Of a stretch of 64,000 nucleotides of DNA, positions 35,452 to 42,414 are shown one piece after another (position 1 is the stretch's first letter; each line of letters begins with the position of its first letter). The stretch is from Micromonospora sp. NBC_01813 (GTDB lineage Bacteria; Actinomycetota; Actinomycetes; Mycobacteriales; Micromonosporaceae). Location of the stretch: assembly GCF_035917335.1 (NCBI RefSeq), contig NZ_CP109067.1:5951001-6015000 (forward strand). Direction: 5' to 3'. A program made the translations under genes and the position numbers. A model generated the notes under the pieces. That model had not been told where the DNA came from and ran no database searches. It saw only the letters and a list, made by a program, of their open reading frames with translations.

Positions 35452-35536
35452 GCTTGTCCAGCGACGGGCCCGGCCTGTCCGGCGCGACCCCGCTCGCCCG
35501 GCGACCCTGCGCCTGCCTGGCGGTGGCGGTCCGCCG

Positions 35537-35680
35537 CGTAGCAGATCAGCACTGCCGCCCCGGAGTTATCCACAGGCGCTCCGGTTGTCCACAGCCTTCG
35601 TGATCACCCGGGCGTGACCCGCCCGCCGGCCCCACAGTTGCGGCATCGCTCCCCGATCCGCATCCGCAGGAGGCCCTCCG
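35537..35680 (+). repeat. ssd upstream region with two DnaA-box-like 9-mers (left copy of duplication)
   Basis: TTATCCACA (35566-35574) and TTGTCCACA (35585-35593) lie 19 bases apart in the same orientation. They are followed by GTGATCACCCGGGCGTGA and by the stretch GTTGCGGCATCGCTCCCCGA leading into the ssd ribosome site. The whole region recurs, diverged, at 40917-41053 in front of tadA. The 9-mers match actinobacterial DnaA boxes. Confidence 0.7.
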
Positions 35681-36772
35681 ATGCCGCCGCCCCGCACCGA
35701 CACGCCCCAATCCCGACGCCTGCCGCTGGTCGTCACCGCCGACGAAGGTCTCCTCGACGACCTGCTGCGGCTGGCCGCGCTCGGCGGCACCGATGTCGAC
35801 CTGGCCGCCGACCCGGTCGCCGCCCGGTCCCGACACAGCGGTGCACCGTTGGTCCTGGTCGGCGTCGACCAGGCCGCCGCCTACCTGCGGGCCCGGCTGC
35901 CCCGCCGGCCCCGGCTGGTCCTGGTCGGCCGGGCCGACCAGGACCAGCCCTGGCAGGTCGCGGAGCTGCTCGGCGCGGAGCACGTCGCGATCCTGCCGGC
36001 GGCCGAGCCGTGGCTGGTCGACCGGTTCACCGACCTGCACGCCGGCGATCGGGTGCCAGCCGTGGCCATCGGCGTGGTGGGCGGCCGGGGCGGTGCCGGG
36101 GCCAGCGTGCTGGCCGGCGGGCTCGCCGTCACCGCCGCCCGTCGCGGGCTGCGTAGCCTGCTGATCGACGCCGACCCGCTCGGCGGCGGGCTTGACCTGG
36201 TGCTCGGCTGGGAGCAGCTCGACGGGCTGCGCTGGCCGGCGTTGGCCGACAGCGACGGGCGGCTCGACCCGGCCGCCCTGGCCGGGGCGCTGCCCTCCCG
36301 AGGCGACCTGGGCCTGCTCAGCTGGGATCGCGGTGCGCCGCTGCCGCTGCCCGCCAGCACCATGACGGCCGCGATCGACGCCGCCCGCCGGGAGCGCGAC
36401 CTGATCGTGCTGGACCTGCCCCGGCGGGCGGACGACGCCGCCATCGCTGCCATGCACGCTGCCGATCAGATCTTCGTGCTGGTTCCGGCCGAGTTGCGGG
36501 CCACCGCTGCGGCGGCCCGGGTCGTCGCCGGCATCCAGGGGCACTGCCCGAACCTGTCGCTGGTCGTGCGCGGCCCAGCACCGGGGCGGCTCAGCGCCCG
36601 GGAGATCGCGCGGTCGCTCAGTCTGCCGTTGGCCGGGGCGCTGCAGTCCGAACCACGGATCAGCCGTGGGTTGGAGCGCGGCGACGCGCCCGGCTCTTCG
36701 GGCAGCGGGGCGCTCGCCGAACTGTGTCACCGGATCGTCGCCGGGCTGGCGGACCGGGCGGCGGCATCGTGA
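35681..36772 (+). CDS. ssd: Ssd/CpaE-like septum-site and pilus-localisation protein
   Basis: This 363-residue ParA/MinD-superfamily protein has a response-receiver-like N-terminal domain (residues 1-115) and an ATPase-like domain beginning AIGVVGGRGGAGASVLAGGLAV. There the deviant Walker A is degenerate: the usual lysines are replaced by Arg and Ala. LLIDADPLGGGLDLVLGWE follows and resembles MinD. The homologue Rv3660c (Ssd) affects septation, and such genes normally precede tadA directly. Here the ssd stop still overlaps a GTG (36769), but that frame is not tadA; tadA lies 4.4 kb further on. AGGAGG precedes the ATG. Confidence 0.88.
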   Translation: MPPPRTDTPQSRRLPLVVTADEGLLDDLLRLAALGGTDVDLAADPVAARSRHSGAPLVLVGVDQAAAYLRARLPRRPRLVLVGRADQDQPWQVAELLGAEHVAILPAAEPWLVDRFTDLHAGDRVPAVAIGVVGGRGGAGASVLAGGLAVTAARRGLRSLLIDADPLGGGLDLVLGWEQLDGLRWPALADSDGRLDPAALAGALPSRGDLGLLSWDRGAPLPLPASTMTAAIDAARRERDLIVLDLPRRADDAAIAAMHAADQIFVLVPAELRATAAAARVVAGIQGHCPNLSLVVRGPAPGRLSAREIARSLSLPLAGALQSEPRISRGLERGDAPGSSGSGALAELCHRIVAGLADRAAAS

Positions 36773-36987
36773 CGGCCACAGCGGCTGTACATCAGTTGTA
36801 CAGGGATTGTACGGGCCCCGCCGTATCGTTTCGCCGTCCACACTCCAAGAAGGTGACCACCCGCTACGGCTACTGGCGCGGCGTGGGCAGCATCGCGTCC
36901 AACGCCTCGTGCGGGAAGTCGGAAACCATCGTGAGTTCGAGCAAGGACGCCGGTATCACGAGAACCGACTACCTTCCGCCGTACTGA
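36769..36987 (+). pseudogene. Short open frame continuing from a displaced tadA start
   Basis: GTGACGGCCACAGCGGCTG at the ssd stop closely resembles the true tadA start GTGACGGCGGCAGCGGCTG at 41185. After six codons the frame diverges completely and runs to a stop at 36985-36987, giving 72 codons with no recognisable domain (second half from VTTRYGYWRGVGSIASN). I read this as the stranded first codons of tadA joined to inserted DNA. An internal GTG at 36853 could start a 44-residue peptide, but the ribosome site is poor. Confidence 0.45.
36786..36813 (+). promoter_or_regulatory. Three TGTAC boxes at 11-bp spacing
   Basis: TGTACA (36786), TGTACA (36797) and TGTACG (36808) are spaced exactly 11 bases, one helical turn. 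They begin six codons inside the displaced tadA start, at the left edge of the inserted DNA. Such phased arrays are typical of operator or iteron sites for a DNA-binding protein of a mobile module. Confidence 0.45.
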
Positions 36988-37014
36988 CAGAGCTGCTGGC
37001 CGCCGGATCGGCGG

Positions 37015-37048
37015 ACTGCCCTCGGTCCCGCTGGGGATCGAGGGCAGT
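37015..37048 (-). terminator. Hairpin terminator after the TetR gene
   Basis: ACTGCCCTCGGTCCC (37015-37029) pairs with GGGATCGAGGGCAGT (37034-37048) over a 15-bp stem with one G-U pair and a four-base loop. It lies 45 bases beyond the TetR stop in the transcription direction of that gene. A near copy occurs after the GntR gene at 39637. Confidence 0.7.
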
Positions 37049-37092
37049 TTCGTACGCTCCTCGGGGTCGGGCAGCTGGTCCTCGCCGTAGCG

Positions 37093-37710
37093 TCACGATC
37101 CTGCCTCGTCTCGCTCCGTCCCTTGGGTGGGCGGGGCGAGCCCGTCGATGAACAGGGCGATCAGGCGATGTACCCGGGGACCAGAGTCATCGGTCGATGC
37201 GGTGGTGAGCAGCGCCAGCACAGCCAGGGACACATCGAACGCGTCGAGGCCGGGCCGAAGACTTCGATCGACGTCGGCTCTTCGCAGGAATCCGGCGACG
37301 ATGTCGGCGATCCGCTGCGCGATCGGCGACGCGGTGATGTCCTCAGACATCCAACTGGACCGCAGCGTGTCCATCATCCCGCGTTTCGCGAGCATGAACG
37401 AGGCGAAGTCCTCGCTCCACGCGGCAAGCGCGGTGCGTGCGTCACCGTGTCGGGTGCGCTGGGCGGCACGCTCAGTGACTTCCTCGACCTTGCTGAGGTA
37501 GACGGCCTCGGCCAGCTCTTCCCTGGTGCCGAAGTGGCGGTACAGCGTGGCGACGCCCACGCCCGCCCGGCGCGCCACCTCGTTCATCGAGATAGGTGTG
37601 TTCGCGTCGTCCGCAGCGGCGAACAGTTCCCGTGCCACGCCGACGATCAGTGTGCGGTTGCGCTCGCGGTCGGCGCGAGCGCGGCGGGGTGACGAGGCTG
37701 GGGTAGACAA
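37093..37710 (-). CDS. TetR-family transcriptional regulator (island)
   Basis: The protein has 205 residues with an N-terminal helix-turn-helix ISMNEVARRAGVGVATLYRHFGTREELAEAVY (about 40-71) preceded by a basic arm (RRARADRERNRT). The C-terminal domain resembles the SbtR/TetR_C subgroup with DITASPIAQRIADIVAGFLRRADVDRSLRPGLDAFDV. It is divergent from a flavoprotein gene across an 80-base region containing an inverted repeat, so it most likely represses that gene and itself. It is part of the ssd-tadA island. Confidence 0.9.
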   Translation of the reverse strand: MSTPASSPRRARADRERNRTLIVGVARELFAAADDANTPISMNEVARRAGVGVATLYRHFGTREELAEAVYLSKVEEVTERAAQRTRHGDARTALAAWSEDFASFMLAKRGMMDTLRSSWMSEDITASPIAQRIADIVAGFLRRADVDRSLRPGLDAFDVSLAVLALLTTASTDDSGPRVHRLIALFIDGLAPPTQGTERDEAGS

Positions 37711-37741
37711 GCGGAGTGCACTCCTCTTATGCTCGAGCTCT

Positions 37742-37764
37742 GAAACGGAACGCCCTTCGTTTCG
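37742..37764 (+). promoter_or_regulatory. Likely TetR operator in the divergent promoter
   Basis: GAAACGGAACG and CTTCGTTTC form an imperfect inverted repeat centred near 37753, of the GGAACG-N5-CGTTTC type common for TetR proteins. It lies between the TetR gene and the flavoprotein gene and upstream of a possible -10 (GAGTATCC at 37764). Confidence 0.5.
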
Positions 37765-37790
37765 AGTATCCCAGATGGGGGCGAAAGCAG

Positions 37791-38501
37791 TTGACCACGC
37801 TCACCGACCGGCTGGCTGATCTTGCCAGCGGTGTACTGCTGGACGCCGCCCAGATCGTCGGCGTCAGTCACCTGCCGGCCGGATTCGTGCGGGTGAAACT
37901 CGCCGCCGAGGCGTTCCGGAAGGCGGCCTGGGCACCAGGCACCAAGCTCCAGATTCGTGCGCAGCGGGGCAGGATGGCGTTGCGCACCTATACGCCCGTC
38001 GACTGGGACCCGGCCCGTGGCGAGGTGGACCTGATCGGGTTCACCCATGCAGGTGGCCCGGGAGCGGAGTGGTTCCGACGGGTGGCGGTCGGCGACACCT
38101 GTCAGGTCCTCGGACCACGCCGCTCGATCGGCCTGCGCGACCTCGCGGGCGCCGTGGTCTTCGTCGGTGACGAGTCCAGCGTGGCGCTCGCCCGCGCGTT
38201 GCACAGCGTGACGAGCAACGCGTCGTACGTCTTCGAGGCGGGCGATCCGGCCGGACTGGTTCAGCTCCTGGCCGGCCTGGGAATCGCCGAGAGGGCAGTG
38301 GTCGTCACCAAGGCTGCGGACCGCACCGAACTGCTCCGGCAGGCGCGAGAGGTCGCCGTCGTGGGACCACGCGTCCTTGTCGTGACCGGCGACGCGGCGA
38401 CAGTTCATGCCGTACGACGCGACAGCCGGAAATGGGCTCACGCTCCCGTGCAGGTAAAAGGCAAGGCTTACTGGGCCGAGGGTCGCACCGGGCTCGACTG
38501 A
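37791..38501 (+). CDS. Siderophore-interacting-type FAD-binding reductase
   Basis: The protein has about 236 residues. The FAD-binding motif RTYTPVDWD near residue 65 and GFTHAGGPGAEWFRRVAVGDTCQVLGPRRS are characteristic of SIP/ViuB-type ferric-siderophore reductases in the ferredoxin-reductase fold. The C-terminal part (VVFVGDESSVALARALHSV and RKWAHAPVQVKGKAYWAEGR) fits the NAD-binding half. TTG 37791 is the preferred start because the frame upstream, back to GTG 37716, crosses the probable TetR operator. It is adjacent to an SDR gene 43 bases downstream, and the pair may form a small redox operon under TetR control. Confidence 0.82.
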   Translation: MTTLTDRLADLASGVLLDAAQIVGVSHLPAGFVRVKLAAEAFRKAAWAPGTKLQIRAQRGRMALRTYTPVDWDPARGEVDLIGFTHAGGPGAEWFRRVAVGDTCQVLGPRRSIGLRDLAGAVVFVGDESSVALARALHSVTSNASYVFEAGDPAGLVQLLAGLGIAERAVVVTKAADRTELLRQAREVAVVGPRVLVVTGDAATVHAVRRDSRKWAHAPVQVKGKAYWAEGRTGLD

Positions 38502-38544
38502 GCGTTGATGGCCGTACCCAAGGCGGAAACTGTGGGAGGTCGAC

Positions 38545-39525
38545 ATGGAGAAAAAGACGGTAATTGTCACGGGTGGCAATGCTGGACTGGGGTACCAATG
38601 CGCCAAGAGCATCGCCGAACGTGACCGCAATTACCATGTCGTGCTGGCCTGCCGTAGCCTGTCGAAAGGCGAAGTCGCCGCTGCGGTACTCACCGAGGAG
38701 ACCAAGAATCCAAACATTTCGACCTTGAGATTGGACCTCGCTTCCCTCTCCTCGGTTCGTGACTTCTGCGCAGAATTCTCCCGGGCGGAAATGCCGCTGC
38801 TCCATTCCGTAGTCTGTAATGCCGGCATCAGTGCTGGTGGTGTGCCCGGCCAGCCTCGCACGACGGACGGCGTCGAGACGATATTCGGCGTGAACCATCT
38901 GGGGCACTTCCTGCTCACCAACCTGCTGCTGAAACACATGAAGCCCGGTGGTCGTGTCGTCTTCGTAGCCAGCGACCTGCACAACCCGCCCCGCTTCTTT
39001 CCGGTCAAGGTAAACTACGGCACCGCAAGGTCGATCGCGGCCCGGAGTGGCCCTGGCATGCAGCAGTACTGCTTGTCGAAGTTGTGCAACATCTACTGCT
39101 GCTACGAGATGTCTCGACTCCTTTCGGAGCAACCCGATCGCCAGATCACGGTGAATGCATTCAACCCTGGTGCAATGGCGGACACTGGGTTTATTAAGCC
39201 GGCGGAGAACGTCATTGTCCGATTCGCAGTGCAGGCGGTTGGTGGCCTCATGGGTGCCCTTATCGGGAAGCAGAGCAACTCGATCGAGTCGGGTTCGGCG
39301 CTCGCCGCACTGGTCACGGAAGCGTCTTACGGTGCAACCACCGGCAGATACTTCGATCGAGGGGTGGAAGTGGCATCATCTGCCCTCTCCTACGATCTGG
39401 GAAACGCCAGAGATCTCTGGGAGACCAGCATGGAGCTATCCGGCTTGAAACAGGAAGAGACCATTTTCGCCTCACCGGGCACTCAGAGCGGGCACAGGCG
39501 GTCGGGTTGTCCACAGGCTGGGTGA
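38545..39525 (+). CDS. Short-chain dehydrogenase (protochlorophyllide reductase-like), tail from repeat
   Basis: This 326-residue SDR has the cofactor motif TGGNAGLGYQCAKS at the N terminus, NAGIS near residue 92 and the catalytic YCLSK near 174. The overall pattern is closest to light-independent relatives of protochlorophyllide oxidoreductase/retinol dehydrogenase; the substrate is unknown. Codon use is visibly less GC-rich than in neighbours. The last codons (GHRRSGCPQAG and stop) are encoded inside a 46-bp DnaA-box repeat, so the natural C terminus seems to have been replaced by insertion. ATG is preceded by GGGAGGT. Confidence 0.83.
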   Translation: MEKKTVIVTGGNAGLGYQCAKSIAERDRNYHVVLACRSLSKGEVAAAVLTEETKNPNISTLRLDLASLSSVRDFCAEFSRAEMPLLHSVVCNAGISAGGVPGQPRTTDGVETIFGVNHLGHFLLTNLLLKHMKPGGRVVFVASDLHNPPRFFPVKVNYGTARSIAARSGPGMQQYCLSKLCNIYCCYEMSRLLSEQPDRQITVNAFNPGAMADTGFIKPAENVIVRFAVQAVGGLMGALIGKQSNSIESGSALAALVTEASYGATTGRYFDRGVEVASSALSYDLGNARDLWETSMELSGLKQEETIFASPGTQSGHRRSGCPQAG

Positions 39526-39538
39526 TCGTTCGGGCGAC
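39493..39538 (+). repeat. Middle copy of DnaA-box repeat (46 bp)
   Basis: CACAGGCGGTCGGGTTGTCC and the following ACAGGCTGGGTGATCGT(T/C)CGGGCG match 40951-40996 with a single mismatch. One complete TTGTCCACA (39507-39515) is present; the first box is cut at its 5' end. The repeat pair bounds the GntR module (39539-40950) like direct repeats around an inserted segment. Confidence 0.8.
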
Positions 39539-39636
39539 AGGTAGCGCCCGTCGCACTCCTTGAGGTGATGCTTCCATCGACTGATCTTGCCGGCGTCTCC
39601 GTCGTCATACGGCCGGTGGTTTCCTGACGCCCCGAG

Positions 39637-39669
39637 CTGCCCTCGGTCCCGTCTGTGGGATCGGGGCAG
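39637..39669 (-). terminator. Hairpin terminator after the GntR gene
   Basis: CTGCCCTCGGTCCC pairs with GGGATCGGGGCAG around a six-base loop with one bulge. The sequence and the following TTCGTA are close to the hairpin behind the island TetR gene, suggesting a shared origin of the two modules. Confidence 0.6.
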
Positions 39670-39676
39670 GTTCGTA

Positions 39677-40090
39677 TTACCTGCCTTCGATCGTGATCCG
39701 GTGTGCGCCGTAGCCCTCGAAGCTGCCGTCAGCGCGGGTCACCAGCACGACCGGTTCGCCTTCGTGAAGCCCATACTTCCGGCGTTCCTCCGGATCGGGC
39801 ATCCTGGACTGCGCCCGGTCGCCGCCACTCAGGGTGACGATGGTCCGTTCCTGCTCGCCCATGACGAACGTCCCGCGACTCTGCACGACCACGATCAAGC
39901 CCTCGCTCCGTAGTTGCTGTAGCGCGCGCCGGACCGTGAGGCGACTCAGCTCGTACTCCTGCACCAGGTGCAGCTCCGAAGGAACTCGCTGACCAGCGGC
40001 AAGCTCGCCCGTACGGATCGCTTGGCGCAGCCGGTCTGCGAGCTGCTTCCACGTAGCGACGTCGGGATCGAAATCGCGTTCTTTGGTCAC
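39677..40090 (-). CDS. GntR-family transcriptional regulator (island)
   Basis: The protein has 137 residues. The winged helix covers ATWKQLADRLRQAIRTGELAAGQRVPSELHLVQEYELSRLTVRRALQQLRSEGLIVVVQSRGTFV (about 12-77), typical for GntR/HutC. Only a stub of about 60 residues follows instead of a full UTRA effector domain, which is the size seen in regulators of actinomycete integrative elements. It is divergent from a three-gene mini-operon, and a strong palindrome lies between them. Confidence 0.87.
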   Translation of the reverse strand: MTKERDFDPDVATWKQLADRLRQAIRTGELAAGQRVPSELHLVQEYELSRLTVRRALQQLRSEGLIVVVQSRGTFVMGEQERTIVTLSGGDRAQSRMPDPEERRKYGLHEGEPVVLVTRADGSFEGYGAHRITIEGR

Positions 40091-40126
40091 AGCGGCAAGT
40101 TAGGTCACTACATGCTGCCGTAGTGT

Positions 40127-40144
40127 TGTGTTGACGTCAATACA
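40127..40144 (+). promoter_or_regulatory. Palindromic GntR operator candidate
   Basis: TGTGTTGACGTCAATACA is an 18-bp palindrome with one mismatched pair and a perfect 10-bp core TTGACGTCAA. It lies 37 bases upstream of the GntR start and just before a possible -10 (TAGAGT, 40150-40155) for the mini-operon. A second dyad, CACTAC-N8-GTAGTG, lies at 40106-40125. Confidence 0.6.
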
Positions 40145-40192
40145 GCACCTAGAGTGACTGTGCCCGTGATGAATCCCTCTCGGAAGGGCTGG

Positions 40193-40381
40193 ATGATGCC
40201 GAGGCACGTTACCTACGAGGCGTACGTGGTCGCGGTGGCCAGGACCTTGGCCAGGCGACATCGGCCGGTGTGGTCCTGGCGCGAGTGGCGGCAGGTTTGC
40301 CGGTGCGGGTCGGCGCTGCCGTGCCGGGCTCGGCATCGGATCCCGATCAACCGGGGGCACTGGCCGGAGGATGGCCGGTGA
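40193..40381 (+). CDS. Small hypothetical protein 1 of GntR module
   Basis: About 62 residues starting MMPRHVTYEAYVVAVARTLARRHRPVWSWREWRQVCRCG; basic, with three cysteines (CRCGSALPC) that could bind a metal. ATG 40193 has GGAAGGG at suitable distance; GTG 40154 is a longer in-frame option. The next ORF starts inside its stop codon (GTGA). No function is recognised; tiny genes of this kind accompany GntR regulators in actinomycete mobile regions. Confidence 0.6.
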   Translation: MMPRHVTYEAYVVAVARTLARRHRPVWSWREWRQVCRCGSALPCRARHRIPINRGHWPEDGR

Positions 40382-40596
40382 GCGTCCACGTTCCTGTCCA
40401 GCCGGCGTGGACCTGTGCGGGGTGCGCGGCCCTGTGGCCGTGTGACACCCGCCGTCAGGAACTGCTCGCCGAGTACGCCGGGGCGAGGGTGTCGCTGTCG
40501 GTGTACATGGCGACGTGCCTGCTCGACGCGATGATCGACTTGGCGGACGACCGGTCTGGCTACCTGTACTGGCGGTTCATGGGTTGGTGGCGCTGA
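40378..40596 (+). CDS. Small Cys-containing hypothetical protein 2 of GntR module
   Basis: The protein has 72 residues with the pattern W-x-C-x2-C-x4-WPC (WTCAGCAALWPC near residue 11) followed by a helical segment (RRQELLAEYAGARVSLSVYMATCLLDAMIDLADD). Similar short proteins are sometimes listed as flavin reductases by annotation transfer, but nothing here supports that. It is translationally coupled on both sides. The cysteines suggest a small zinc-binding protein. Confidence 0.6.
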   Translation: MSVHVPVQPAWTCAGCAALWPCDTRRQELLAEYAGARVSLSVYMATCLLDAMIDLADDRSGYLYWRFMGWWR

Positions 40597-40784
40597 TGTC
40601 GGTGATCCTTCCCGGTGATGAGCACATGCACTTCGAGGATGGCTCGCATCGTTGGTATCCGCCCGACCCGGACGACACCGATCAGAAGGCGTGGGAGGTC
40701 CGCGTACGCGTGCACCAGGACCAGCACCGCGAGGAGAAGGACCCGCCACCGCCCCGTAAGCGCTGGCCCCGACGGTCGATCTAG
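40596..40784 (+). CDS. Small hypothetical protein 3 of GntR module
   Basis: About 62 residues (MSVILPGDEHMHFEDGSHRWYPPDPDDTDQKAWEVRVRV), very polar, acidic in the middle and basic at the end (PPPPRKRWPRRSI). ATG overlaps the previous stop (TGATG). No domain is recognised. A hairpin about 80 bases downstream may end the transcript. Confidence 0.55.
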   Translation: MSVILPGDEHMHFEDGSHRWYPPDPDDTDQKAWEVRVRVHQDQHREEKDPPPPRKRWPRRSI

Positions 40785-40863
40785 GGCGGGGTTGGCGCCG
40801 TCCGCGCGAATGTGACCGCAGGGGTGGGATACCTCTTCGAGCCTGATCCCCTAGGAGGATTTT

Positions 40864-40880
40864 GATCCCCCAAGGGGATC
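40864..40880 (+). terminator. Hairpin after the GntR-module mini-operon
   Basis: GATCCCC (40864-40870) and GGGGATC (40874-40880) form a perfect 7-bp stem with loop CAA, preceded by ATTTT. A related GATCCCC occurs at 40844. It lies between the mini-operon and the tadA-side repeat. Confidence 0.5.
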
Positions 40881-40916
40881 ACGCTGGAACAGAGTTCGGC
40901 TTCTGGCCGGCTGCTG

Positions 40917-41053
40917 CATAGCAGATCGGGTGTGCACGTCGGGGGTTGTCCACAGGCGGTCGGGTTGTCCACAGGCTGGGTGATCGTCCGGGCGTGAGCT
41001 GCCCACCGGCGTCCAGAGTTGCGGCATCGCTCCCCGATCCGCAGGAGGCCCGG
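40917..41053 (+). repeat. Right copy of the ssd upstream region with two DnaA boxes
   Basis: Two TTGTCCACA boxes at 40946-40954 and 40965-40973 are again 19 bases apart. The downstream GTTGCGGCATCGCTCCCCGA and GCAGGAGGCC are shared with the left copy at 35537-35680, which carries an extra TCCGCA. The segment 40951-40996 is also nearly identical to 39493-39538. It ends at the start of the truncated second ssd. Confidence 0.75.
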
Positions 41054-41188
41054 ATGCCGCCGCTCCGCACCAGCACAGTTCAGTCCCGAGGTCTGCCGCC
41101 GGTAGTGACTGTCGACGAAGGTGTCCTCGACGACCTGCGGCGGCGGCTGACTGTGTTCGGGGGCGCGGCTCGGGTGGTGGGGTCGTGA
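41054..41188 (+). pseudogene. Internally deleted second copy of ssd
   Basis: A 44-codon frame reads MPPLRTSTVQSRGLPPVV then TVDEGVLDDLRRRL. This aligns with the intact ssd N terminus MPPPRTDTPQSRRLPLVV then TADEGLLDDLLRLA. The frame then jumps to FGGAARVVGS and stops in a GTGA overlap with tadA, exactly where a full-length ssd should end. Ribosome site AGGAGG is kept. The roughly 320 central codons are missing, so this is a remnant that may still drive coupled translation of tadA. Confidence 0.75.
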
Positions 41189-42414
41189 CGGCGGCAGCGG
41201 CTGGCTCCGGCAGTTCGTCGGGCGGTGGTTCGGCGGGTGCCGGGTCGGTGGCGGCTCGGGTGCGGGAGCGGTTCATCGCCGATGGGGCGGTGGTGACGCC
41301 GGCGTCGGTGGTCAGTGCGGTGCGGGCGGAGCCGGGTGCGGCGTTGTTGGGTGATGCCCGGTTGTTGCGGATCGCCGGTGAGGTGCACGGGGAGTTGGCC
41401 GGTGCCGGGCCGTTGGCTCCGTTGTTGGCCGATGCGCGGGTGACGGATGTGCTGGTGAACGGCACGTCGGTGTGGGTGGATCGCGGCGCTGGTCTGGAGC
41501 GTGCGTCGGTGGTGTTCCGGTCGGTCGACGAGGTGCGCCGGTTGGCGCAGCGGTTGGCGGCTGCGGCGGGGCGTCGGCTCGACGACGGTTGTCCGTACGC
41601 GGATGCTCGGTTGCCGGACGGGACCCGGTTGCATGCGGTGTTGCCGCCGATCGCGGCGACGGGTCCGTATCTGTCGTTGCGGACGTTCCGGCAGCGTCCG
41701 TTCCAGTTGCCGGAGCTGGTCGAGCGGGGCATGGTGCCGGGTCCGTTGGCGGAGTTGCTGCGGGCGGTGGTGGCCGCCCGGTTGGCGTACCTGGTCACCG
41801 GCGGGACGGGGTCGGGCAAGACGACATTGTTGAACACGATGCTCGGGTTGGTGCCGGCTGATGAGCGAATCGTGTTGGTGGAGGATGCCGCCGAGTTGCG
41901 GCCGGAGCATCCGCATGTGATCGGTCTGCAGGCGCGCACGGCGAATGTCGAGGGTGCCGGGACCGTGGGCTTGGGGGAGTTGGTCCGTCAGGCGTTGCGG
42001 ATGCGTCCGGACCGGCTGGTCGTCGGCGAGTGCCGAGGCGCCGAGGTGGTCGACCTGCTGGCAGCGCTCAACACCGGCCACGAGGGTGGCGCCGGCACGC
42101 TGCACGCCAACGCGGCCGGCGACGTGCCGGCCCGGTTGGAGGCGTTGGGGCTGCTCGGCGGGCTGCCCCGGCCCGCGCTGCACGCCCAGATGGCCGCCGC
42201 GATCCAGGTCGTCGTCCACCTTCGTCGGGTGGCCAACCGCCGCATGGTGGACGCGGTGTGCCTGCTGACGCCGGAAGGTCCGCAGCATCTGGTGACCGTC
42301 GCGCCAGCCTGGCGGTACGGGCACGGCCGGCAGCCCGCTGGCGACACCCTCGCCCGCCTGTTCGTCGAGCGTGGGGTGGCGGTCCCGGCGCTGCTTCGGG
42401 ACGGATCCCGATGA
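41185..42414 (+). CDS. tadA: TadA-type pilus-assembly ATPase (CpaF)
   Basis: This 409-residue secretion ATPase powers assembly of Flp/Tad pili. It shows Walker A GGTGSGKTTLLN (about residue 206), the VLVEDAAELRPEHPHVIGLQAR segment, Walker B RLVVGECRG (about 276), and ALNTGHEGGAGTLHANAAGDVPARLE near 293. GTG overlaps the stop of the ssd remnant. The 5' two thirds (to about 42000) use many G/T-ending codons, while the 3' part is C-ending like its neighbours, suggesting recombination within the gene. It is followed by tadB through ATGA. Confidence 0.93.
   Translation: MTAAAAGSGSSSGGGSAGAGSVAARVRERFIADGAVVTPASVVSAVRAEPGAALLGDARLLRIAGEVHGELAGAGPLAPLLADARVTDVLVNGTSVWVDRGAGLERASVVFRSVDEVRRLAQRLAAAAGRRLDDGCPYADARLPDGTRLHAVLPPIAATGPYLSLRTFRQRPFQLPELVERGMVPGPLAELLRAVVAARLAYLVTGGTGSGKTTLLNTMLGLVPADERIVLVEDAAELRPEHPHVIGLQARTANVEGAGTVGLGELVRQALRMRPDRLVVGECRGAEVVDLLAALNTGHEGGAGTLHANAAGDVPARLEALGLLGGLPRPALHAQMAAAIQVVVHLRRVANRRMVDAVCLLTPEGPQHLVTVAPAWRYGHGRQPAGDTLARLFVERGVAVPALLRDGSR

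What the first reader, a model, noticed from the sequence alone, without database searches (positions are those of the whole stretch)
35537..41190. Island inserted between ssd and tadA, bounded by a duplicated ssd promoter and 5' end
The intact ssd (35681-36772) ends in GTGACGGCCACAGCGGCTG, almost identical to the tadA start at 41185, so ssd and tadA were once directly coupled. About 4.4 kb later, tadA is preceded by a second ssd copy reduced to its first about 30 codons plus its last few, together with the same upstream region and DnaA-type boxes. Between them lie TetR/flavoprotein/SDR and GntR modules. This implies duplication of the ssd region, capture of foreign DNA between the copies and deletion of most of the second copy, leaving a 44-codon leader in front of tadA. 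No integrase or transposase is visible, so the mechanism is open.
Basis: partly seen in the sequence, partly recalled or inferred. Interest (0 to 1): 0.75.

Follow-up and report, generated by a model that had tools for sequence, protein, structure and literature searches.

The report
Tad operon split, start region duplicated
In one genus of actinobacteria an island of changing genes has split the Tad-pilus operon after its first gene, and a copy of that gene's control region and start, with two DnaA-type sites that are conserved in its relatives, stands in front of the second gene and probably drives the rest of the operon.

Summary
In detail: the ssd promoter and 5' end (35524-35771) recur before tadA (40904-41144) at 76-97% identity. 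The reading needs changing. The event is not this genome's own. Of 7 genomes of the genus, 6 have ssd and tadA 2.7-4.6 kb apart, each with a truncated ssd start before tadA but with different cargo; one (G004, grouped with island carriers) has none. In 78 of 78 assessable loci of other Micromonosporaceae (80 fetched) the genes are adjacent. The remnant looks useful: in 6 of 6 genomes it is an open frame behind an AGGAGG, overlapping the tadA start (3) or fused in frame to TadA (3). The duplicated promoter carries two DnaA-box-like words 19 bp apart. This pair, with up to 3 mismatches, stands before ssd in 76 of 80 relatives (control 1 of 4,870 windows); the window's genome has only two exact pairs, at ssd and tadA. 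Most likely an old duplication gave tadA its own ssd-type start region, cargo then turned over, and copies were homogenised or re-duplicated in some lineages. No integrase was seen. DnaA control is inferred, not shown; seven paper searches listed no report of it.

The parts
35524..35680 (+). ssd promoter region, left copy; TAGCAGATC at 35539-35547, DnaA-box-like TTATCCACA 35566-35574 and TTGTCCACA 35585-35593
   Evidence: pair conserved (up to 3 mismatches) in 76 of 80 relatives
35681..36772 (+). ssd (TadZ/CpaE-like septum site-determining protein), intact
   Evidence: TIGR03815 372 bits
36769..36787 (+). stub of the tadA start left behind ssd (17 of 19 bases as at 41185)
   Evidence: similar stubs in congeners by eye
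37016..37054 (.). terminator-like palindromic repeat, 90% identical to 39637-39676; the two flank the cassette
37093..37710 (-). TetR-family regulator (cassette specific to this genome)
   Evidence: PF00440; no cassette match at E 1e-20 in the 6 congeners
37716..38501 (+). siderophore-interacting-type FAD flavoprotein (cassette)
   Evidence: PF08021
38545..39525 (+). short-chain dehydrogenase, C-terminus running into the third promoter fragment (cassette)
   Evidence: PF00106; overlap with 39493-39536
39493..39536 (+). third, partial copy of the promoter (one exact box at 39507), 98% identical to the tadA-side copy
39637..39676 (.). terminator-like repeat behind GntR, partner of 37016-37054
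39677..40090 (-). GntR-family regulator, island backbone (DNA 90% in G002, 89% in G003)
   Evidence: PF00392
40154..40784 (+). three overlapping small genes (about 40154-40381, 40378-40596, 40596-40784), no Pfam match for the frames scanned, island backbone, 83-85% in G001, G002, G005, G006
   Evidence: starts inferred from overlaps
40828..40900 (.). palindromic repeat with about 18 further places in the genome, between the small genes and the promoter copy
40904..41053 (+). ssd-type promoter, right copy, before tadA; TAGCAGATC 40919-40927, boxes 40946-40954 and 40965-40973, AGGAGG before the ATG
41054..41188 (+). ssd remnant, 44-codon leader whose TGA overlaps the tadA GTG
   Evidence: counterpart in 6 of 6 island genomes
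41185..42414 (+). tadA (CpaF-like ATPase), first gene of the separated tad genes
   Evidence: TIGR03819 485 bits

Best explanation
This is a hot spot for gene turnover that has split the ssd-tad operon between its first two genes in one genus of Micromonosporaceae. The start region of ssd (promoter with a two-box DnaA-type site, ribosome-binding site, first codons) was duplicated, and the second copy was kept in front of tadA. Shown: duplicate, island, variable cargo, ancestral adjacency, open remnant frame in every island genome, conserved box pair. Inferred: the right copy is the working promoter and translation start of tadA and the genes behind it, and this need is why the remnant was kept while the rest of the second ssd was lost. 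Also inferred: the boxes bind DnaA and tie ssd and tad expression to replication. The likely history is an ancestral tandem duplication of promoter-ssd-tadA start, entry of regulator genes between the copies, repeated cargo exchange (here a TetR/flavoprotein/SDR cassette), gene conversion or renewed duplication in the G003 and perhaps the G000 lineage, and clean loss in G004.
For: Adjacent ssd-tadA in 78 of 78 assessable loci of other Micromonosporaceae, 80 fetched. ssd and tadA 2.7-4.6 kb apart in 6 of 7 genomes of the genus, with a right promoter copy in each. Cargo differs on the left (TetR/flavoprotein/SDR; HTH plus a frame that looks RelE-like; alpha/beta hydrolase) with a shared backbone of GntR, DUF397/XRE-DUF5753 and small genes, not all in every genome (Pfam on G001 and G003 proteins). 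Remnant frame open in 6 of 6: overlapping leader in G000, G001, G005, in-frame fusion to TadA in G002, G003, G006; AGGAGG before its ATG in 6 of 6. Box pair: exact in 38 of 80 and within 3 mismatches in 76 of 80 relatives, all 76 at 19 bp, against 1 of 4,870 control windows; exact in 12 of 13 copies in the genus, the 13th with 2 mismatches; only 2 exact pairs in the own genome, both here; 12 of 14 exact pairs in the 7 genomes lie here. In G001, G002, G005, G006 the boxes are better conserved between left and right copies than the rest (p 0.0003-0.0006, not independent). rpoB, ssd and tadA trees group G004 with island carriers G001 and G005 (rpoB 98.8-99.1% identity).
Against: No expression data; an open frame of about 40 codons in GC-rich DNA is not rare by chance and the six are related. 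Right copies do not form one clade (AU p 0.0003), so a single duplication without later conversion is rejected and independent duplications remain possible. Box conservation between copies is not significant in G003 (p 0.39) and weak in G000 (p 0.036). The 80 relatives are the best matches to ssd, so near relatives weigh heavily; in the wider family draw only 102 of 200 genomes hold any exact pair and some hold several elsewhere. Adjacency is not without exception in the wider draws: ssd is split by elements in G072 and G148, and gaps of a few hundred bp are seen in G034 and G230. G004 could have regained the joined state from outside. DnaA binding is untested, and the own genome holds 38 TTRTCCACAG words in all.
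Confidence: 0.6

Rival explanations
1. Three separate insertions (G000 lineage, G003 lineage, G001/G002/G005/G006 lineage), each duplicating the host's own ssd start region, rather than one old event with later gene conversion.
For: In G003 left and right copies are 86% identical and form a clade (100/100), and in G000 they are 80% identical, while right copies of different lineages are 57-67% identical; left junctions and remnant break points differ between lineages.
Against: The same small-gene module lies next upstream of the right copy in G000, G001, G002, G005, G006 at 83-85%, close to core divergence, and GntR, XRE and small-gene order is collinear where present. The G000 left-right pairing has weak support (30/24), and holding G000_R with the right copies of G001, G002, G005, G006 is not rejected (AU p 0.455).
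Confidence: 0.35
2. One reading: a recent duplication and capture in this genome alone.
For: The TetR/flavoprotein/SDR cassette has no match at E 1e-20 in the 6 congeners (only patches under 90 bp at looser cut-off), and the third promoter fragment is 98% identical to the right copy, so recent rearrangement did occur here.
Against: 5 of 6 congeners have an island and a truncated ssd start at the same place.
Confidence: 0.07
3. The island is a decayed site-specific mobile element that entered at ssd.
For: In two other genera a 12-13 kb element with a large serine recombinase sits in ssd at codon about 308-312, and the G072 element carries a gene that by eye resembles the island's second small gene.
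Against: No recombinase among the nine window proteins scanned; break points here are at the ssd-tadA overlap and promoter, not at codon 310; the duplicated promoter is not explained; cargo has no phage match and only short plasmid matches, those listed all in the TetR region.
Confidence: 0.12
4. The remnant and promoter copy are mere debris with no role; tadA is expressed from elsewhere.
For: Nothing here measures expression; related genomes share ancestry, so open frames may be inherited.
Against: Different deletions in different lineages all leave an open frame that meets or enters tadA, and the boxes and AGGAGG are kept.
Confidence: 0.15
5. The paired TTRTCCACA sites are bound by a dedicated regulator and not by DnaA.
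For: The fixed 19-bp spacing, single orientation and similar distance from ssd look like a two-site regulator; binding was not tested.
Against: The 9-mer is the DnaA box TT(G/A)TCCACa reported for oriC of Actinoplanes, same family (passages of PMC3364876).
Confidence: 0.3

Closest known systems
Actinobacterial ssd/tadZ-tadA Tad (Flp) pilus operon
   Same: ssd and TadA pass the curated NCBIfam cut-offs; a T2SSF gene and a DUF4244 gene follow; in M. tuberculosis the ssd gene Rv3660c is called tadZ, in a seven-gene cluster (passages of PMC9531140)
   Different: ssd and tadA are separated by an island and tadA has its own copy of the ssd start region
DnaA boxes of Micromonosporaceae oriC
   Same: same 9-mer consensus TT(G/A)TCCACa (passages of PMC3364876)
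   Different: only two boxes, fixed 19-bp spacing, before ssd and tadA and not between dnaA and dnaN
XRE-DUF397 regulator loci of actinomycetes
   Same: the G001 island has an XRE-DUF5753 gene beside a DUF397 gene, with relatives in other congener islands; such pairs are described for Streptomyces (abstract start in the search listing, PMC10364602)
   Different: none was found in the window's island, which has GntR and small genes
Large-serine-recombinase elements
   Same: elements of this kind sit in ssd in two other genera
   Different: no recombinase found in the window island, another break point, and a duplicated promoter

Membership tests
Tad pilus operon (ssd/tadZ, tadA) | ssd and tadA above curated family cut-offs | tested here: met
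   TIGR03815 372 against 154 bits; TIGR03819 485 against 373 bits
Tad pilus operon (ssd/tadZ, tadA) | ssd directly upstream of tadA | tested here: not met
   about 4.4 kb between them here; met in 78 of 78 assessable loci of other genera
Integrative mobile element | integrase, recombinase or transposase in the island | tested here: not met
   none among the nine window proteins scanned
Integrative mobile element | empty site in close relatives | tested here: met
   G004 in the genus and 78 of 78 assessable other-genus loci
DnaA-box site | sequence consensus TTRTCCACA, more frequent than chance | tested here: met
   pair in 76 of 80 (up to 3 mismatches) against 1 of 4,870 control windows
DnaA-box site | bound by DnaA | not testable with these tools
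   no binding data
Translationally coupled leader | leader stop overlaps the start of the next gene | tested here: met
   G000, G001, G005; in G002, G003, G006 fused instead
Translationally coupled leader | translation of the downstream gene depends on the leader | not testable with these tools
   needs reporter fusions

The most novel reading that the evidence does not exclude
DnaA directly controls the ssd-tad operon in Micromonosporaceae through a conserved two-box site of fixed spacing, tying the septum protein and Tad pilus to replication; when an island split the operon, selection kept a second DnaA-controlled start region for tadA, a natural experiment showing that both halves need this control.
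Probability: 0.4. Interest if true: 0.75.

Novelty: new variant of a known kind. Interest (0 to 1): 0.5.

Why it matters
It shows how an operon can survive an insertion: the first gene's start region is copied and the copy is taken over by the second gene, as an overlapping leader in some species and as a fused N-terminus in others. It also points to a paired DnaA-type site before ssd, conserved in nearly all of 80 relatives and not reported in the papers my searches listed, which makes a link between replication and the Tad/septum genes directly testable in laboratory actinomycetes.

Tried and rejected
A recent event in this genome alone was rejected because 5 of 6 congeners share the arrangement. 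A phage or plasmid source for the cargo: no phage match; 13 plasmid records with a match, the 10 listed covering at most 9% of the query, all in the TetR region. A relative of the cassette was found at E 1e-20 in 10 of the 199 other family genomes, partial only, 70-75%; I did not examine those neighbourhoods. One clade of all right copies was rejected (AU p 0.0003); a clade of right copies without G003 was not (p 0.455); the place of G000_R is unresolved. A first rpoB tree was wrong because three loci lay on the other strand; it was redone. Relating the recombinase elements in G072 and G148 to this island failed on the break points; no exact repeat of 10 bp or more was found at their two ends. 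Papers: seven searches listed nothing on DnaA boxes at ssd/tad promoters; four of the lists were cut (15 of 17, 12 of 68, 12 of 51, 10 of 59 papers shown). I judged by titles and abstract starts, and saw passages of two papers.

Rows dropped: L162 and L167 from the gap count (no tadA match; the contig ends there). Gaps are extrapolated from tblastn ends. Distances in the 200-genome family survey were read from the listings, not counted by script, and the listings were cut; I used them only to pick outliers. The box count in other families of the order (30 loci: 1 of 4 in f13, 2 of 3 in f5, 3 of 10 in f10, 0 of 1 in f14, against 12 of 12 in the own family) allowed mismatches and spacings of 12-30, has no control and is only a hint.

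The name RelE-like for the frame in G001, G002, G005, G006 is recalled by eye; no family search was made with it.
Full report
What is there. ssd (35681-36772) and tadA (41185-42414) are real: they pass the curated models TIGR03815 (372 against 154 bits) and TIGR03819 (485 against 373 bits). The stretch before and into ssd recurs before tadA: 76% over 107 bp, 97% over 31 bp and 82% over 92 bp. The remnant frame 41054-41188 has 44 codons and its TGA overlaps the tadA GTG.

What lies between. Window cargo: TetR, siderophore-interacting FAD flavoprotein, SDR and GntR genes, and small frames without Pfam match; no recombinase among the nine window proteins scanned. The first three form a cassette. 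At E 1e-20 it has no match in the 6 congeners and only partial relatives in 10 of the 199 other family genomes searched; at a looser cut-off congeners show only patches under 90 bp. Two terminator-like repeats, 90% identical, lie at 37016-37054 and 39637-39676 on either side of it.

Relatives. Of 80 named Micromonosporaceae loci, the best matches to ssd, 78 could be assessed (two end at contig edges). In all 78 the extrapolated gap between ssd and tadA is at most 184 bp, and in 75 it is negative, that is, the genes overlap or nearly so. In the window's genus 7 genomes are held. G004 has ssd and tadA joined; in the other six they are 2.7-4.6 kb apart, each with a right copy of the ssd promoter before tadA. 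The left part of the cargo differs: an HTH protein with a frame that looks RelE-like in G001, G002, G005 and G006 (open over 109 codons in G006 from the point read; 61, 21 and 12 codons in G005, G001 and G002), an alpha/beta hydrolase in G003, the cassette here. DNA of the GntR gene (89-90% between G000, G002 and G003), DUF397/XRE-DUF5753 genes and the small genes (83-85% between G000 and G001, G002, G005, G006) form a collinear backbone of which each genome has a part. Another copy of the small genes, 94% identical, lies elsewhere in the own genome.

The remnant. In 6 of 6 island genomes the ssd-type ATG opens a frame that meets or enters tadA: overlapping leaders of 44, 38 and 38 codons in G000, G001 and G005, and in-frame fusions giving proteins of 424, 424 and 410 residues in G002, G006 and G003. 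An AGGAGG precedes the ATG in 6 of 6. I infer that the right copy supplies tadA with promoter and translation start; no expression was measured.

The boxes. The promoter holds two TTRTCCACA words 19 bp apart on the coding strand, typically about 90 and 110 bp before ssd. Exact words: at least one within 400 bp before ssd in 65 of 80 relatives and two in 38 of 80, against 6 in 1.45 Mb of the rest of these loci. As a pair, exact in 38 of 80 and with up to 3 mismatches in 76 of 80, all 76 at 19 bp; the same test on 4,870 control windows of the same loci, both strands, gave 1. The four without it (L149, L152, L156, L163) are Actinoplanes; by eye L149 has two such words 17 bp apart. In the genus 12 of 13 copies, left and right, have the exact pair; G003's left copy has 2 mismatches. 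The own genome holds 38 TTRTCCACAG words but only two exact pairs at this spacing, before ssd and before tadA; over the 7 genomes 12 of 14 exact pairs are here. Against a simple rule: in the family draw only 102 of 200 genomes hold any exact pair, and some hold several in other places. The word equals the DnaA box given for Actinoplanes oriC (passages of PMC3364876). Between left and right copies the boxes are better conserved than the rest in G001, G002, G005 and G006 (p 0.0003-0.0006, related genomes), weakly in G000 (0.036), not in G003 (0.39).

History. ssd and tadA trees and an unrooted rpoB tree group G004 with G001 and G005, so its empty site is most simply a loss, though regain from outside is possible. 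Left and right copies are 86% identical within G003 and 80% within G000, while right copies of different lineages are 57-67% identical. A single clade of all right copies is rejected (AU p 0.0003); without G003 it is not (p 0.455). The G003 left-right pair has full support (100/100), the G000 pair little (30/24). So there was either gene conversion after one old duplication, or more than one duplication. The shared backbone next to the right copy makes me prefer the first, at about two to one; this is judgement.

Literature. Seven searches of the held library listed nothing on DnaA boxes at ssd/tad promoters. Four of the lists were cut and the library lacks most subscription journals.

Verdict. 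A real and instructive case: an island hot spot inside an operon, with a start region copied and taken over by the downstream gene. The island type is ordinary; the conserved paired site and the two ways of re-using the remnant are the new parts.

Noticed in passing
L176 (G072) and L177 (G148): In two other genera ssd is split at codon about 308-312 by a 12-13 kb element with a large serine recombinase (Resolvase plus Recombinase domains) near its right end. No exact end repeat of 10 bp or more was found; by eye both may share a core of 2-3 bp.
   Followed up: partly
window 40828-40900: A palindromic repeat of about 70 bp with matches at about 18 other places in the own genome and a few in congeners.
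   Followed up: no
window 37016-37054 and 39637-39676: Terminator-like repeats, 90% identical, flank the TetR/flavoprotein/SDR cassette and may mark how it was taken in.
   Followed up: no
L178-L182 (G042, G037, G094, G179, G169): tadA next to ssd matches only in part or in several pieces, so frame breaks, decay or assembly errors are possible.
   Followed up: no
window 40204-40782 and G000:C1:6170495-6171067: The small-gene module has a second copy in the own genome, 94% identical, closer than the congeners' island copies.
   Followed up: no
80 relatives and the 13 copies in the genus, about 20 bp before the first box: A further block, TAGCAGATC, is conserved in most promoters of the family alignment; it is exact in 6 of 6 right and 4 of 7 left copies in the genus. 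Its role is unknown.
   Followed up: partly
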